Origin: Ascidia mentula
Taxonomy: Eukaryota; Chordata; Ascidiacea; Phlebobranchia; Ascidiidae
NCBI GenBank assembly: GCA_947561715.1
Contig: OX387201.1
Span: 18,552,001-18,616,000 of the forward strand
Length of the DNA stretch: 64,000 nucleotides
Reading direction: 5' to 3'
The notes below the pieces were generated by a model. The model was not told the origin of the DNA. It saw only the letters and a program-made list of their open reading frames with translations, and did not search any database. The position numbers were made by a program, and so were the translations under genes. Shown here one piece after another: positions 20,035 through 64,000 of this stretch. The stretch's first letter is position 1. Each line of letters starts with the position of its first letter.

Positions 20035-23000
20035 TTAAATTTATGTAATATTGATTGACTTGCAAGCAATCGCTAAGTTGCATTGCAAATATACACACAT
20101 ATATACTGTATTAGAATATTATTGACATAACATTATATTACTTCTACAAGCTCTTCGCATGAAACGTTTTACACAGAAATAGAATTTTAACGTATCACAC
20201 TAGAGTTAAATGGTTGCCAGTCTGGTGGTTTACCTCTTTATGGAAGCAGCATCTGGTCTTGGGTCGCACTTAATCCCAAGGTTAGCTGATAATTGATGAG
20301 TATCAATACGAGATATAACTTCATCAGCCGTCTCTATTATTTCATCTAATTTCTCCTCTCTTGTCTACAAATGCATGAGCTTAATGATGGTGAAAAAATA
20401 ACTTTTATTTTCAAAGTATTCCCAGGAATTTTTACAAATTAACCTGTCTTATAAAAATTAATGATTACCTTTGTCGCTTTAAGTGCTTGTAGTTTAGCCA
20501 TGTAAAGAGGTATGTGTTTACCCCAGTCCAACCTCAGTTTATTAAACAAGTCCAGTCGTTCTTGTCTGTCACGGAATATCAAAGTTTAGGATATAATCGT
20601 GTCAGCAATGATTTTGTTAATTATCGGATTTGGTTACGTCATACTTGGCAACCCAGGAAATTTAAAGGTCTCTGATGTCATCCTCCCACTAGTTGAAGCT
20701 TTTGTTTGATTTCTTTAAGTTTGAGTTGCGGTTAGTTTTGTTCTTGCTCGGTGGGTCGATCAGGACCTACGTGAATTTGTGTGTGTACTGCAGGAAACAA
20801 GATAGGCAACATATAAGATTTGAACTCTACTGATTTAGATGCAGAAGCCAAGGACATCATCTATATGAAAAAAAGTAATAAAGACAAAAGGTGAATTTCT
20901 ACATAGTTTGTTATTCTACCCCTTCAGAAATCTTGGACCTTTTTCCTCTATACAAGCTCTGTTAACAATGCACATTGCTTCAGAGGAAGATAAATTGAGT
21001 GTTTGAATTAACACAACTTACTGCACGTTTTCCAAGCTCCCCTTTTGCCATGCTCATCTGACCAATCAGGTACTGTCCTCCAGTCACATGCTTTGGTAAT
21101 CTGAAATATTTAAAAGTGATTTAAATGTTGTTTAGCGCTTGTCACATGACAAACAAACCAAACAAACACAATCTTACTTGTCTTCTTGTAAAGGAGCAAC
21201 ATAGAATGGAAATGGATGTCCAGGAATCACTGTTTGATTCGACATCTTGTTACTTCCCATCAACGCGTCTCTGTGTGTGGAAAAAACATCCAGTGATATT
21301 GACGATGACAGCTTGGCTTTCACCACTAGTGCGGCGTCCTTGAGTCGGTGTAGGGCATCCCTCGATGAATGGGAGACTTGTAAGCGTATTGTGTATTCAC
21401 CTTTGTCCAATTTGATTGGGTACTGTAAGATAAATACATGCATAATAGTCCAATATCAACTGTGTCTAATTACAAATATGATATGTAATCACTATAATGA
21501 ATATACCTGGTGAGGGTAAGCGTCCCCTGCACCCACAAAGCACTTGTTGGAATCAAACATCAACCATATCTGACTGTTATATTCATTCTCGTACAATAAA
21601 TCCGACAACATGGGAAAGGATATGGTGACTTCAGATGACTTTGTCTGCAGACAATTTATTGTGAGTTAATAAGTTACAACAGTAACCCCAGTGATAGATG
21701 CAGGTAATGAGGCTGCTCAGTTTAAAACTTCACAAATTTATCATAAATTGTTTTAGGTTTATGCGATAATTTCGTAAATAAAACATAAACAGTTTTAAGT
21801 CTCTGTTGATTCAAATCAACCACAGTCTCACCACATGCAAAGGGTATGTGTTGATCATCTCATATGTTGGTTGATCTCCAAGAACATGATCTCTAGCTGA
21901 TAATGGACGTATACAATGATCAGTTGCTCTCAGGGGTTGTACAACGTGTTTGAGGGTTATAGAGGGTGAGATATCTTCTCTTTCCAATGAGCAAGCTTCA
22001 AGGCGATGAATTCCGTTGGCTGCATGCTGGGAAGGTTCATGACTATGTTACTTTCTGTATTTACTTCATCTTGGTTGTACAACATGCTCCTGGTGAGGTT
22101 TGAACCAACAACCTTGACTACCGTGGTTCACCAATCAGAGTGAATGAAGTGGTCGGTTGAGGTCCAGTTCATATATTCTGTTTTATGAGTCAAATACATA
22201 AATATTGCACTCACCATAACCAAGTTGTTGCTAACGGTAAGCCCACGAAATTTGACGTCATATGAAATGGAGACGTCACCTAAACTTGACCACCAACGAG
22301 CGACACAGAGTTCTACTGTGATCCCAGACTAAAAAGTAAAACACATTAAGTAATGCAAAACAATGCATGTAGAGGTAAAAAAACTACAAATGCTAGATAT
22401 TATATAATATTATTGTGCACAAAGGCGGGAATTGTTACCTGAACAGCAAACGCCTGCTCTGTGGAGCCACCTGCTGGAACATTTACGAGTTTGTAAAACT
22501 CTTGTTCACGAAATGCTCTTTGAGGTCGAATATTGACGCAGTGTAACACGAATCTTGCTGACTGATCGATTGAGTGATTTCTCAAAGTCATTTCTGTGGG
22601 AAAAGTAATTGTCTGATCCTAATATAAGAGTCAATACAAGCCTCAAGCAAGCTGTTGCTAAGAACTAAAAAATACATTTTCAGCATAAAGTTAATTCTAG
22701 GTTGAATCTGTGCATTTGTCAAATCCTGACCTGCCCATGTTGCACCTTCAGGTACATGGAAGAACTTTCTTGCTATCTGTCCAGGTTTAAACGTTCGTTG
22801 TTCTTGTTGAAGTCGGTAGTTGGTGAGTTGATCAGTTCTTGACAAAGATATCTCAGGTTATAAGTTTTGTGAAATTATTCATTCATTGGGAAACGAAGTC
22901 AAAAAAATTACAATAAATTAATCATAAAAAATAAAATTAATTAAAAGAAAGGAAACTGAAGGCTCTTACTTTTCTGGTTTAATGACAGTGACTGGCAGAG

Positions 23001-24274
23001 TGAAAAGTACTCCTGCATTCAAACGCTTACTGTTGCAACCTTGAACCTGGGCATAATGTACACCTGGAGGTAATCCTCTTGGATCCACCTGAAAATACAA
23101 CCAGATGATGATTTAATTTAAACAAACATGAATTAAATCCATACAACAGATCAACATCTTTTCAGTAACATTATTTACCTGCTGTTTGTGTACCCATATT
23201 GTTAAAGTCTATTCCAAAACATCATTTCAAAATGTGTTGGACAAACTACCCAGGGCTGGTCACTGCATATATGACAACTAAATTCTATCTTTTCCTCAGA
23301 ACCTAAAGATTTGAGAAATGAATGTTCATCCGCAAACACAGACTATAATGAGGGCTTGACAACTGTTTGATATTTTAGTGCTTACTTGCTGAAGAGTGGA
23401 ATTTGGGTTCGACAGTCACACTGACAGAACGTGGTTTCAAACAATCTTCATAAGAACGTAGATAAATTCCTGCAAACAAGTTAAATATTATGTTGATCTC
23501 ATGGATCTTGATAGAGAGCTGAAAGTGAGAAACTATACAGGTTGCAAACAACAATTTATCTTAAACTATCAACAATTACCTTTTCCTGATTGTGGAAGTG
23601 AAATGTCAAAAGATATCTTGTTTTCTGGTGCAGCATCATTATTTATTATATATTCAAATGCTTCATTTACCTTAAAAATGTGAGATATAAATTATATGTA
23701 ACTTCCCAGTATATTCATATCAGCCTACCTGTAAAAATCCATGACCCTGAGCAAAGCATTCAATAGAGCTTTGTTTTGATGCTGTGTTTTGTATCGCGCG
23801 ACGTATACTGTATGGAGTATATTGTATTTCCTGAGCTTTCAATGCCAAAACATAGCAGTAATTTTATTCTTGAATCTGCACAAAGCAACAATTAAAAAAT
23901 AAATTTTAGTTGCTGAACTATTTTAATTTTAATTTTATCTACCAGAGATACAAAGTTAAATTGCACCAATTTCACAACTATTTTAACTAATTCTCTACCA
24001 ATATTTACTTAGGTTTTTGATTTATAAGTTTCTGTCCAAACCAGATGAAAATCTACCCGATAAAATAAGTGCAATTGCACCACACGCATTTGGTGAAGAC
24101 ATTGAGGTTCCATTCATTAGCTGACTCCCGCGTAAGATCCAATCATGTTTGGAAAAAACTTTGTGACCCAGTGTAAAAGTATCTTCCATTTGGAACAGAG
24201 GTGGTGGCGCCACCTGGTGCTGATATGGACACACCACGTGCTCCATTCTATGGGGCGCCGTTTTGAAAAAAATT

Positions 24275-24520
24275 ATCTTGCCGCAACATAGAGCTAAGTT
24301 GCGGCAAGATAGCTAAGTTGCGGCAACATAGTGCTAAGTTGCGGCAAGATAGCTAAGTTGCGGCAACATAGTGCTAAGTTGCTGCAAGATTGCTAAGTTG
24401 CCGCAACATAGAGCTAAGTTGCGGCAACATAGTGCTAAGTTGCGGCAAGATAGCTAAGTTGCCGCAACATAGAGCTATCTTGCCGCAACTTAGCACTATG
24501 TTGCCGCAACTTAGCTATAG
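24275..24520. repeat. Left repeat arm of the DDE transposon
   Basis: This is a tandem array of about 18-20-bp words alternating CTAAGTTGCGGCAACATAG and CTAAGTTGCGGCAAGATAG, with inverted copies at the inner end so that the arm can also fold on itself. It is complementary to the array at 26833-27297. Confidence 0.85.
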
Positions 24521-26832: not shown

Positions 26833-27297
26833 TTTTAGCTAACCTGCGGCAACAAAGCTTTATAATGCGCAACTTCGTTATCTTGCAGCAACTTAGCTCT
26901 ACGTTGCGACACATTGACTCTATGTTGGGGGAACTTGGCTGTCTTGCAGCAACTTAGATATCTTGCAGTAACTTAGCTCTATCTTGCGGCAACATATCTA
27001 TCTTGTAGCAACTTCGATCCATGTTGCGGCAACTTAGCACTATGTTGCCGCAACTTAGCTATCTTGCCGCAACTTAGCACTATGTTGCGGCAAGATAGCT
27101 CTATGTTGCGGCAACTTAGCTATCTTGCCGCAACTTAGCACTATGTTGCCGCAACTTAGCTATCTTGCCGCAACTTAGCACTATGTTGCCGCAACTTAGC
27201 TATCTTGCCGCAACTTAGCTATCTTGCCGCAAGATAGCTCTATGTTGCCGCAACTTAGCTATCTTGCCGCAACTTAGCTTTATCTTGCAGCAAGTTA
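26833..27297. repeat. Right repeat arm of the DDE transposon
   Basis: An array of TAGCTATCTTGCCGCAACT and TAGCACTATGTTGCCGCAACT words, with degenerate copies toward the inner end. It is the inverted counterpart of the left arm but about twice as long, so the arms differ in repeat number. Confidence 0.85.
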
Positions 27298-27669
27298 ATA
27301 TTTTTCAAAAAGGCGCCCCATACCATTCACACTAAAATGTGATTCAATAACATTTTAAATATTAACACAAGGTAACTAACAACAAAAAACAAGTTGTTAT
27401 ATTGCTTACCATGGGCACATTGACGACCATGTGTATTGGTTGCTAGGCAGTTTTTCATCGAACATCGAAAGTCATCGAATATTCTGCTGTCATCATGTCA
27501 GGAAATACTTACGCTCCCATACCAAAAAAAGATAAGGAGGTTGAGAACCTTTATTGTGCGTGTAAAGAACCGAATGCTGTGAAAAATCATGTGAATGATA
27601 CTGAAAAGAGAGACAAGTCTACTAACAAATCACAGGCACTACAAAGAAACATTTCTTTTTTTTAATGCA

Positions 27670-54627: not shown

Positions 54628-56784
54628 CCTAAATTTATGTAATATTGATTTACTTGCAAGCAATCGCTAAGTTGCATTGTAAATATACACGCATATATAC
54701 AGTATTAGAACATTATTGGCATAACATTATATTACTTCTAGCAGTTCTTCACTTGAAATGTTTTACACAGAAATAGAATTTTAACGAATCACACTAGAGT
54801 TAATTGGTTGCCAGTCTGGTGGTTTTACCTCTATATGGAAGCAGCATCTGGTCTTGGGTCGCACTTAATCCCAAGGTTAGCTGATAATTGATGAGTATCA
54901 ATATGAGATATAACTTCATCAGCCGTCTCTATTATTTCATCCAATTTCTCCTCTCTTGTCTACAAATGCATGAGCTTAATGATGGTGAAAAAATAACTTT
55001 TGTTTTCAAAGTATTTCCGGAATTTTTACCAATTCACCTGTCTTAAAAAATTAATGATTACCTTTGTCGCTTCAAGTGCTTGCAGTTTAGCCATGTAAAG
55101 AGGTATGTGTTCACCCCAGTCCAACCTCAGTTTATCAAACAAGTCCAGTCGTTCTTGTCTGTCACAGAATATCAAAGTTTAGGATATAATCGTGTCAGCA
55201 ATGATTTTGTTAATTATCAGATTTGGTTACGTCATACTTAGCAACCCAGGAAATTTGAAGGTCTCTGACGTCATCCTCACACTGGTTGGAGCTTTTGTTT
55301 GATTTCTTTGAGTTTGAGTTGCGGTTAGTTTTGTTCTTGCTCTGTGGGTCGATCAGGACATACGTGAATTTGTGTGTGTACTGCAGGAAACAAGATATGC
55401 AACATATAAGATTTGAACTCTACTGATTTAGATGAAGAAGTCTAGGACATCATCTATATGAAAAAAAGTAACAAAGACAAAAGGTAAATTTCTACATAGT
55501 TTGTTATTCTACCTCTTCAGAAATCTTGGACCTTTTTCCGCTATACAAGCTCTGTTAACAATACACATTGCTTCAGAGGAAGATAAATTGAGTGTTTGAA
55601 TTAACACAACTTACTGCACGTTTTCCAAGCTCCCCTTTTGCCATGCTCATCTGACCAATCAGGTACTGTCCTCCAGTCACATGCTTTAGTAATCTGAAGT
55701 ATTTAAAAGTGATTTAAATGTTGTTTAGCGCTTGTCACATGACAAACAAACCAAACAAACACAATCTTACTTGTCTTCTTGTAAAGGAGCAACATAGAAT
55801 GGAAATGGATGTCCAGGAATCACTGTTTGATTCGACATCTTGTTACTTCCCATCAACGCGTCATGTAAATATGTAATCACTATAATGAATATACCTGGTC
55901 CCCTGCACCCACAGAGCACTTGTTGGAATCAAACATCAACCATATCTGACTGTTATATTCATTCTCGTACAATAAATCCGACAACATGGGAAAGGATATG
56001 GTGACGTCAGATGATTTTGTCTGCAGACAATTTATTGTGAGTTGATAAGTTACAATAGTAGCCCCATTGATAGGTGCAGGTAATGAGGCTGCTCAGTTTA
56101 AAACTTCCTAAATTCATCATAAATTGTTTTAGGTTTATGCGATAATTTCGTAAATAAAACATGAACAGTTTTAAGTCTCTGTTGATTCAAATCAACCACA
56201 TTCTCACCACATGCAAAGGGTATGTGTTGATCATCTCATATGTTGGTTGATCTCCAAGAACATGATCTCTAGCTGATAATAGACGTATACAATGATCAGT
56301 TGCTCTCAGAGGTTGAACAACGTGTTTGAGGGTTATAGAGGGTGAGAGATCCTCTCTTTCCAATGAGCAAGCTTCAAGGCGATGAATTCCTTTGGCTGCA
56401 TGCTGGGGAGATTCATGACTACATTACTTTCTGTATTTACTTCATCTTGGTTGTACAACATGCTCCTGGTGAGGTTTGAACCAACAACCTTGACTACCAG
56501 GGTTCACCAACCAGAGTGAATGAAGTGGTCGTATTAGGTCCAGTTCATATATTCTGTTTTATGAGTCAAATATAGAAATATTACACTCACCATAACCAAG
56601 TTGTTGCTAACGGTAAGCCCACGAAATTTGACGTCATATGAAATGGAGACGTCACCTAAACTTGACCACCAACGAGTGACACAGAGTTCTACTGCGATCC
56701 CAGACTAAAAGTAAAACACATCAAGTAATGCAAAACAATGCATGTAGAGGTAAAAAAATACAGTTCTTGGATATTATATAATAT

Positions 56785-56873
56785 GATAAGCAATGTGGAG
56801 CCAATATAGTCAGCTGCACTGATGAGACCTTTTAGGTCGAAACAATGGCCATCTGTCTGCAGCTTATACACAA
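56785..56873 (+). mobile_element. 89-bp hammerhead-bearing insert with 12-bp target duplication
   Basis: Unit A has a single ATTATATAATAT at the equivalent site (about 22398). Unit B has it twice, at 56773-56784 and 56874-56885, with 89 bp between. Most of the insert is the complete ribozyme at 56812-56864. A long, AT-rich target duplication and no inverted-repeat ends point to RNA-mediated insertion (LINE- or Penelope-type priming) instead of cut-and-paste; the mechanism is inference. Confidence 0.85.
56812..56864 (+). ncRNA. Complete type I hammerhead ribozyme
   Basis: Stem I strands AGCTGCA and TGCAGCT are perfect 7-bp complements. Between them come CTGATGA, stem II (GACCT, TTT loop, AGGTC), GAAA, a short stem III (ACA with TGT around AATGGCCATC, itself self-complementary at AT/AT and GG/CC) and cleavage-site C. 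All invariant core positions are present. It is antisense to the TPP2 remnant and lies in one of its introns. Confidence 0.85.
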
Positions 56874-57374
56874 ATTATATAATATTATTGTGCACAAAGG
56901 CAGGAATTGTTACCTGAACAGCAAATGCCTGCTCTGTGGTGCCACCTGCTGGAACATTAACGAGCTTGTAAAACTCTTGTTCAAGAAATGCTCTTTGAGG
57001 TCGAATATTGACGCAGAGTAACACGAATCTTGCTGACTGATCGATTGAGTGATTTCTCAAAGTCATTTCTGTGGGAAAAGTAATTGTCTGATCCTAATAT
57101 AAGAGTCAATACAAGGCTCAAGCAAGCTGTTGCTAAGAACTAAAAAATATATTTTCAGCATAAAGTTAATTCTAGGTTGAATCTGTGCATTTGTCAAATC
57201 CTGACCAGCCCATGTTGCACCTTCAGGTACATAGAAGAACTTTCTTGCTATCTGTCCAGGTTTAAACGTTCTTTGTTCTTGTTGAAGTCGGTAGTTGGTG
57301 AGTTGATCAGTTCTTGACAACGATATCTCAGGTTATGAGTTTTGTGAAATTATTCATTCATTGGGGAATGAAGC

Positions 57375-62869: not shown

Positions 62870-64000
62870 TCGAGTTCTTCTGGCAGCCGGGACGTACTAC
62901 CCAAACCGGAACGGTGCTGGTATCAGCCGATCAATGGATACGTATTGTTTGCTACGGTCAATATCAAGCTTAAACGTTTCGGCCGCTAACTGCACCACTT
63001 TCCACAGCCCGTCGTAAGAATCCGCCAAAGGAGGTTGTTTCTCGGCAAATCGGTACATGGTATCAAAGGAGGTTGTTTCTCGGCAAATCGGTACATGGTA
63101 TCAAAGGAGGTTGTTTCTCGGCAAATCGGTACATGGTATCAAAGGAGGTTGTTTCTCGGCAAATCGGTACATGGTATCAAAGGAGGTTGTTTCTCGGCAA
63201 ATCGGTACATGGTATCAAAGGAGGTTGTTTCTCGGCAAATCGGTACATGGTATCAAAGGAGGTTGTTTCTCGGCAAATCGGTACATGGTATCAAAGGAGG
63301 TTGTTTCTCGGCAAATCGGTACATGGTATCAAAGGAGGTTGTTTCTCGGCAAATCGGTACATGGTATCAAAGGAGGTTGTTTCTCGGCAAATCGGTACAT
63401 GGTATCAAAGGAGGTTGTTTCTCGGCAAATCGGTACATGGTATCAAAGGAGGTTGTTTCTCGGCAAATCGGTACATGGTATCAAAGGAGGTTGTTTCTCG
63501 GCAAATCGGTACATGGTATCAAAGGAGGTTGTTTCTCGGCAAATCGGTACATGGTATCAAAGGAGGTTGTTTCTCGGCAAATCGGTACATGGTATCAAAG
63601 GAGGTTGTTTCTCGGCAAATCGGTACATGGTAAGGTCTCCGATCTTTTGTAGAATGGTAGGGACGAACACATTAAGCTTTTTGGAACCCCTTCGCGGACC
63701 TTCTTGTGTCTCGACATGGGCGTCAAAAGTAGCTGTTTAAGAGGTATTCTTAATGCAAGAAAAAGCGTTGTGGGCTCGTCGTCGTTAAGTGGGGAAATGA
63801 TCTGCCCAGGCATCACCTATGTTGTGGCATAACCCATCTCAGTGAAAGAAATCTGCAAATGTTCTTTTGGTGTAGTGCGTATTCCAATAGTGCTCAACGT
63901 AGCTAATCCAACCAGTTAATTCCGAAGTGCGGTCTACGATCTGAAGACATGTAGGCTGGAATAGCCAAACAGGAAATCCAATGATATACAAAAGCCCTGA
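62870..64000 (-). pseudogene. Ty3/gypsy-like pol fossil, continuing past the window edge
   Basis: The minus strand has integrase-region sequence at the right end (related to 27.67-28.35 kb) and, further downstream, the post-integrase words ETFKLDIDRSK and VSIDRLIPAPF typical of gypsy-class pol. It is old, with several breaks. A 38-bp tandem array has expanded inside it. Confidence 0.7.
63027..63632. repeat. 38-bp minisatellite, about 16 identical copies
   Basis: The unit contains AAAGGAGGTTGTTTCTCGGC followed by AAATCGGTACATGGTATC. Fifteen full copies and one nearly full copy show no differences that I can see. Because 38 is not a multiple of three and the unit has no stop in any forward phase, long ORFs of about 190-230 codons appear in all three plus frames; these are artefacts. 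Perfect identity implies very recent expansion, or an assembly or copying effect. Confidence 0.92.

What the first reader, a model, noticed from the sequence alone, without database searches (positions are those of the whole stretch)
56785..56873. Hammerhead ribozyme caught as a discrete 89-bp insertion with a 12-bp target duplication
Unit A is an exact empty site, so the insertion boundaries are visible directly. An insert that is little more than a ribozyme, with a long AT-rich target duplication, suggests that self-cleaved small RNAs are being reverse-transcribed into the genome, as for retrozymes or ribozyme-bearing Penelope-like elements. Such a minimal mobile unit would be unusual.
Basis: partly seen in the sequence, partly recalled or inferred. 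Interest (0 to 1): 0.87.

Follow-up and report, generated by a model that had tools for sequence, protein, structure and literature searches.

The report
Ribozyme retroelement inserted Penelope-style
The 89-base insert is real: it is one of hundreds of copies, many of them cut short, of a small element with a self-cutting RNA motif in a sea squirt genome, and its two ends sit in the DNA as those of Penelope-type retrotransposons do, which were suspected but not shown to move such elements.

Summary
Confirmed: an 89-bp hammerhead-ribozyme insert (56785-56873) with an exact 12-bp target duplication; unit A has the empty site. The genome matches Ascidia mentula kaAscMent1.1.

It is not a minimal mobile unit. 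It is two end fragments of a 285-bp tandem retrozyme fused head to head: a 22-nt reversed piece (end 'Y') and a ribozyme piece (end 'X'). Y lies 30 nt beyond X in the monomer. The ribozyme-to-X stretch has 333 exact genome copies.

Of 43 parsed insertions, 39 have exact target duplications of 10-16 nt (null 1 of 1806). All 30 two-ended copies pair one X with one Y, from 76 bp to 1.8 kb. Targets show a symmetric AAY-(12-13 bp)-KTT motif. Arms of one insertion share variants (permutation 1 of 20,000).

In the same genome, 7 of 7 Penelope-like (PLE) arrays with both ends read show the same plan: head-to-head, a tail of about 30-42 nt on one end only, 7-13-bp repeats. This fits published PLE biochemistry. 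Best reading: PLE machinery inserts retrozyme RNA by reverse transcription from both cut strands. The helper PLE, circular RNA and ribozyme activity were not shown.

The parts
56773..56784 (.). left copy of the 12-bp target duplication (ATTATATAATAT)
   Evidence: alignment with unit A
56785..56806 (-). Y arm: 22 nt, reverse complement of the 30-nt 'tail' that follows the ribozyme in the tandem monomer; outer end Y
56807..56873 (+). X arm: ribozyme-bearing piece ending at X (GCTTATACACAA); the script counts 61 nt, or up to 67 if a 5-nt deletion beside the junction is allowed for (by eye)
56812..56864 (+). type I hammerhead: stem I 56812-56818/56858-56864, CTGATGA 56819-56825, stem II 56826-56829/56835-56838, short stem III 56842-56844/56854-56856, cleavage 56857^56858
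   Evidence: sequence, by eye; sub-threshold Rfam matches; energy of the fold
56874..56885 (.). right copy of the target duplication
22399..22410 (.). empty target site in paralogous unit A
56878..57093 (-). open frame over the neighbouring exon of a tripeptidyl-peptidase II-like gene (the frame runs on into the intron); the insert lies about 40 bp into that intron, antisense to the gene
   Evidence: Pfam TPPII_GBD E 1.9e-5 (25.3 bits, under the cut-off of 27.3) here and E 1.4e-7 (32.1 bits) in the frame 57063-57332; splice donor read by eye

Best explanation
The insert is a doubly truncated, head-to-head copy of a non-coding 285-nt hammerhead retrozyme, put in place by the machinery of a Penelope-like element. 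A GIY-YIG endonuclease cuts both target strands before xTT, mostly 12-13 bp apart, leaving 3' overhangs. Each 3' end primes reverse transcription of retrozyme RNA, one from start site X and the other from start site Y, 30 nt downstream of X. Each cDNA runs for a variable distance, sometimes over several monomers, and the two cDNAs are joined in the middle, often at microhomology. Filling in the overhangs gives the target duplication. Here both cDNAs stopped early (22 and about 61-67 nt). Shown: ends, target duplications, X/Y pairing, symmetric target motif, shared variants between arms, the same plan in PLEs of this genome. Inferred: the PLE protein as helper, the order of steps, the overhangs, a circular template, and ribozyme activity.
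For: Empty site and target duplication. 333 exact copies. 39 of 43 parsed insertions have exact duplications of 10-16 nt (mean 12.6 over the 40 with at least 9 nt), against 1 of 1806 mismatched flank pairs; duplications 82% AT, flanks 63%. 30 of 30 two-ended copies pair X with Y; 11 of 11 in the less biased C1 set. All 13 single-arm copies are in that set: 7 end at X (6 by script, L046 by eye), 6 at Y. Target motif: T at the second and third positions after the right duplication in 27 of 30 each (p 8e-11 each); AAx before and xTT after together in 12 of 30, expected 0.33. Arms of one insertion share variants: pooled mismatch 1.15% own against 2.59% other loci, permutation 1 of 20,000, 12 loci. 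Junction overlap of 3 nt or more in 12 of 30, random 5.2%. 12 of 60 arms exceed one monomer; all 30 X arms (48 nt or longer) run past the ribozyme cut 16 nt from X. 7 of 7 PLE arrays with both ends read have one tailed and one untailed end and flanking repeats of 7-13 bp, with GIY-YIG matches on opposite strands. One PLE frame (L065, 799 aa) has RVT_1 and GIY-YIG domains. The PLE protein PAc cuts and extends both strands, prefers ATT, and starts at two adjacent internal sites (PMC11167929).
Against: Against 27 stretches downstream of GIY-YIG matches the monomer has only short matches of up to 17 nt, apart from a separate diverged ribozyme copy in L076, so the helper family is not identified. 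The retrozyme's AAY...KTT motif is not evident in most of the 7 PLE arrays. One PLE array (C67) has only a 7-bp repeat, within the range of chance. Four of the 30 X/Y calls rest on short or imperfect Y matches of 8-16 nt (L020, L022, L024, L054). L046 and L047 lack a convincing duplication. No RNA data, so expression, circularity and self-cleavage are untested. The hammerhead fold is not the minimum-energy fold (-15.1 against -17.4 kcal/mol; -11.5 against -15.4 for the window copy). No LINE insertions of this genome were examined as a control.
Confidence: 0.82

Rival explanations
1. The 89-bp form is itself the mobile unit: a processed small RNA of about this length is copied and re-inserted.
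For: A discrete insert with clean boundaries and target duplication; 14 head-to-head copies of 76-99 bp were parsed, though most were picked by likeness to the 89-mer.
Against: Junctions differ (15 different among 16, the repeated one a segmental duplication). The same outer ends bound inserts up to 1823 bp. The left 22 nt are an inverted piece of the longer monomer.
Confidence: 0.04
2. LINE-type target-primed reverse transcription with twin priming mobilises the retrozyme.
For: Twin priming makes inverted 5' pieces flanked by target duplications (recalled for L1; abstracts in the listing).
Against: Twin priming is expected to give a variable inner start for the inverted arm (recalled). Here the second end is fixed at Y (m23-32) in 30 of 30, the two starts lie 30 nt apart as in PLEs, no poly-A end was seen in the copies printed, and 7 of 7 PLE arrays have the same plan.
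Confidence: 0.08
3. Self-priming (snap-back) of one cDNA, as suggested for PLE palindromes in Adineta, makes the head-to-head form.
For: Proposed in PMC3846280 (passages); head-to-head is the orientation seen.
Against: The two arms stop at unrelated places: within 15 nt of each other in 2 of 30, about 3 expected by chance (31/285 per insert). Snap-back does not predict a second fixed end Y.
Confidence: 0.06
4. A DNA transposon (MITE-like) cut-and-paste element.
For: Both ends carry GCTTAT-like inverted motifs (by eye) and target duplications of similar length.
Against: Single-arm copies truncated at varied points still have target duplications; tandem multimers and variable interiors; no longer terminal inverted repeat seen by eye.
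Confidence: 0.02

Closest known systems
Metazoan non-LTR retrozymes with type I hammerheads (Cervera and de la Pena 2020, PMC7229834; abstract, sections 13 and 17 and passages seen)
   Same: Non-coding tandem units of 150-450 bp (here 285), type I hammerhead per unit, under 50% GC (47%), target duplications longer than 4 bp.
   Different: Those are described as tandem repeats; 'inverted' does not occur in the main text. Here 30 of 43 parsed copies (11 of 24 in the less biased set) are head-to-head with fixed, paired X/Y ends, and short fused-end copies are common. Host is a tunicate.
Penelope-like elements, Penelope/Poseidon type (PMC11167929 parts 1-2 of 4; PMC3846280 passages)
   Same: Head-to-head arms, optional ~30-40-nt tail on one end, both strands cut and extended at AT-rich sites, two adjacent internal start sites, hammerhead motif in the pLTR.
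   Different: The retrozyme has no ORF for RT or endonuclease, no sequence in common with the PLE ends tested, and a hammerhead with a stem III.
RAGATH-1 hammerhead (Rfam RF03152)
   Same: Sub-threshold match.
   Different: 17.1 bits against a cut-off of 56.3; the match runs across the inverted junction, so it is not good evidence.

Membership tests
metazoan non-LTR retrozyme | type I hammerhead with intact core | tested here: met
   core, stem I and cleavage site intact in 60 of 71 motif copies picked by pattern (the pattern itself requires part of the core, so badly damaged copies are not counted); activity not tested; Rfam scores below cut-off
metazoan non-LTR retrozyme | tandem units of 150-450 bp, one ribozyme per unit | tested here: met
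   285-286-bp spacing over five consecutive units in L051, inserts up to 1823 bp
metazoan non-LTR retrozyme | no coding capacity, GC below 50% | tested here: met
   GC 47.4%; longest stop-free stretch in the tandem 94 codons, not tested for coding signal
metazoan non-LTR retrozyme | target duplication longer than 4 bp | tested here: met
   39 of 43 at 10-16 nt
metazoan non-LTR retrozyme | expressed as linear and circular RNA | not testable with these tools
   no RNA data
Penelope-like element (as member) | ORF with RT and GIY-YIG domains | tested here: not met
   285-bp unit without a long frame; so it is not a PLE, only integrated like one
PLE-type integration (how it works) | head-to-head arms with a tail on one end only | tested here: met
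   30 of 30 two-ended copies; 7 of 7 PLE arrays of the same genome
PLE-type integration (how it works) | both strands cut at an xTT motif | tested here: met
   27 of 30 at each T position, symmetric, inferred from insertions; not clear in the seven local PLE arrays
PLE-type integration (how it works) | template recognised by a named PLE protein | not tested
   helper not identified; no similarity to 27 stretches

The most novel reading that the evidence does not exclude
PLE-type integration is a coordinated two-strand reaction in which the two start sites have a division of labour: one per target strand. A protein dimer held on one (perhaps circular) RNA starts one cDNA at X and the other at Y, reads the RNA from both cut ends, and the cDNAs are joined in the middle. 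The 'tail' of PLEs is then the footprint of that pairing, and retrozymes are its smallest natural substrates.
Probability: 0.42. Interest if true: 0.82.

Novelty: new variant of a known kind. Interest (0 to 1): 0.68.

Why it matters
Who moves animal retrozymes is open: PLEs have been named as likely candidates from co-occurrence, shared hammerheads and tandem copies (PMC7229834 section 17; PMC7761336 passages). Here the insertions themselves carry the PLE signature, base by base, in a chromosome-level assembly with many closely similar copies. The strict pairing of the two start sites also bears on how PLEs finish insertion, which the one biochemical study I read leaves unresolved (PMC11167929, parts 1-2). 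Both points become testable with short RNAs and a purified PLE protein.

Tried and rejected
Rfam on the window, on 56600-57050 and on L065+L051: no match above cut-off, and none even at E 1 in L051, which holds several copies; the family had to be recognised by motif and copies. BLAST of the monomer against PLE ends: no shared X/Y sequence; helper not assigned. An F6-type PLE copy in L048 4549-4783 sits in a site that reads AAC-13-GTT by eye: a single lead, not counted. PDB search of one exon frame: no match; Pfam settled the gene. Paper searches for ascidian or tunicate hammerhead elements: one search found none; one search listed 12 of 2,079, of which the Didemnum vexillum genome paper (PMC8704543, passage) reports 9 type I hammerhead loci without more. 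Searches for retrozyme with Penelope, or with target-primed reverse transcription, listed no title or abstract reporting this signature; most listed papers were not read and the library lacks most subscription journals. Clusters dropped before the counts because their best match was under 80 bits: L020 204-314, two in L022, one each in L045, L048 and L062, and L038 (broken copy). L009-L028 were mostly chosen by likeness to the 89-mer and are biased towards its junction, so arm stops near m2-9 and m219-227 are not interpreted. The less biased set (L012, L026, L027, L045-L064; 23 loci, 24 inserts) holds every exact 55-mer place listed on C1 up to 19.38 Mb; one search listed only the first 100 or so of 333 places. 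A Y/Y copy whose arms do not reach the ribozyme would be missed.

Full report
Observation. Aligning units A and B shows one large gap of 101 bp at the site: in B the 12-mer ATTATATAATAT occurs at 56773-56784 and 56874-56885 with 89 bp between; in A it occurs once, at 22399-22410. The insert holds a hammerhead core with a 7-bp stem I, a 4-bp stem II, a short stem III and a GTC cleavage site (by eye). Rfam scores it only below threshold. The gene is tripeptidyl-peptidase II-like on the minus strand; the insert sits in an intron, antisense to it.

Genome. The assembly that holds the window has 195.84 Mb in 79 contigs. Its nine large contigs (lengths) agree with the nine published chromosomes of Ascidia mentula kaAscMent1.1 to the second decimal of a megabase or within 0.01 Mb, and the longest is 27,920,005 bp in both (PMC11109543, passages). 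The published totals are a little larger (196.98 Mb, 95 scaffolds), so the copy held may be filtered.

What the insert is made of. The 55-nt stretch from the ribozyme core to the right end occurs exactly 333 times in the genome, and 0 times when read backwards. Reading copies with flanks showed a tandem monomer of 285 bp. Its end X (GCTTATACACAA) closes the ribozyme; 30 nt further on in the next monomer lies a second end, Y (CATTGCTTATC). The first 22 nt of the window insert are the reverse complement of sequence ending at Y. So the 89 bp are two end pieces of one longer element, fused head to head.

Boundaries. I parsed 43 insertions in 42 loci. Inserts range from 72 to 1823 bp. Exact direct repeats of 10 nt or more flank 39 of 43; mismatched flank pairs reach this in 1 of 1806. 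The mean length is 12.6 for the 40 with at least 9 nt. L046 and L047 have no convincing duplication. Thirty inserts have two outward-facing 3' ends. In all 30, one is X and the other Y; four of these rest on short or imperfect Y matches (L020, L022, L024, L054). If ends were chosen independently the chance of a mixed pair is at most 0.5 per insert. In the less biased set, every exact 55-mer place listed on contig C1 up to 19.38 Mb (23 loci, 24 inserts), it is 11 of 11. The other 13 inserts are single-arm, cut at varied 5' points, ending at X in 7 (L046 by eye) and Y in 6.

Target sites. With the Y arm on the left, the bases outside the duplication read AAY before and KTT after: T at the second and third positions after it in 27 of 30 each, A at the matching places before it in 24 and 19 of 30. 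The motif is symmetric. The simplest reading is that each strand is cut before xTT, leaving 3' overhangs of mostly 12-13 nt that prime the two cDNAs. The duplications are 82% AT, flanks 63%.

Template. Twelve of 60 arms exceed one monomer, and all 30 X arms run past the ribozyme cut 16 nt inside X, so the template was uncleaved, multimeric or re-ligated. Arms of one insertion are more alike than arms of different insertions (1.15% against 2.59% mismatch; 1 of 20,000 permutations; 12 loci), as expected if both come from one RNA or one source array. This fits rolling reverse transcription of a circle but does not prove it. Two of 30 inserts have an arm stopping within 2 nt of the cut, so run-off from cleaved RNA is at most rare.

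Junctions. Overlap at the fusion is 3 nt or more in 12 of 30, against 5.2% for random junctions; a few involve the self-complementary stem I sequence. Arms meet at unrelated template positions (within 15 nt in 2 of 30), which argues against snap-back priming.

Comparison with PLEs of the same genome. A Pfam scan finds at least 121 GIY-YIG matches (150 of 382 candidates scored), a number of them in long open frames and in pairs facing away from a common centre. The C67 array has two units on one strand and three on the other, with arms identical over 1363 bp at the centre. I read both outer ends of seven arrays: C67, C72 (15.02 Mb), C71, C52, C73, C72 (17.90 Mb) and C69. Each has one end with a tail and one without (39, 34, 30 and 42 nt in the first four; the other three by eye, similar), and flanking repeats of 7 (11 if four bases of the element end are counted), 12, 10, 12, 12, 12 and 13 bp. 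Mismatched pairs among the first four give 5 to 8. Of 27 stretches downstream of GIY-YIG matches, 20 contain a hammerhead-like pattern, by eye mostly without a stem III. No nucleotide similarity beyond 17 nt ties the retrozyme to any of the 27, apart from a separate diverged ribozyme copy in L076, and the AAY...KTT motif is not clear in most of the seven arrays, so the helper remains unnamed. LINE insertions were not examined.

Literature. In vitro, a PLE protein from Anolis cuts and extends both strands, prefers ATT, and starts at two adjacent internal sites, which explains the genomic tail (PMC11167929, parts 1-2 of 4). Adineta Penelope elements have an inverted pLTR, a 31-bp tail optionally on one of the inverted pLTRs, and duplications of 8-10 bp where given (PMC3846280, passages). 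Animal retrozymes are described as tandem repeats with duplications larger than 4 bp, and PLEs are named as strong candidates for mobilising them (PMC7229834, sections 13 and 17), while a review says the repeats show no motif pointing to a helper (PMC7761336, passages). In those texts, and in the titles and abstracts listed, I saw no report of X/Y-paired head-to-head retrozymes; the library is incomplete.

Verdict. The object is a member of the retrozyme kind with a PLE-type insertion pattern not described for it in what I read. The 89-bp form is an extreme truncation. Steps shown are the ends, pairing, duplications, motif, shared variants and the parallel in PLEs. Steps inferred are the helper protein, the circular template, and ribozyme activity.

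Noticed in passing
window 63026-63632: 38-bp unit repeated 16 times with 100% matches, a very young or homogenised minisatellite.
   Followed up: no
window 24278-24517 and 26868-27297: Two arrays of TTGCGGCAACATAGAGCTAAG-like units; one stretch of each matches the other as an inverted copy at 90% (24249-24517 with 27056-27322).
   Followed up: no
L022 2495-2819, L045 2549-2677, L076 508-557: Diverged hammerhead-bearing sequences (76-91% in parts), suggesting further retrozyme families in this genome.
   Followed up: partly
G000 C67:6134028-6146916: Head-to-head tandem array of a PLE with five GIY-YIG matches, open frames of 559-892 aa and identical arms over 1363 bp at the centre, so probably a very recent insertion.
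   Followed up: partly
L048 4549-4783: Single-arm copy of another PLE family whose target reads AAC-13-GTT by eye, like the retrozyme sites; a possible lead to the helper.
   Followed up: no
L038 and L039 (C70:10325379 and C70:10449786): A fused-end copy duplicated 124 kb apart with 99.9% identity over 1553 bp, one copy broken inside the ribozyme.
   Followed up: yes
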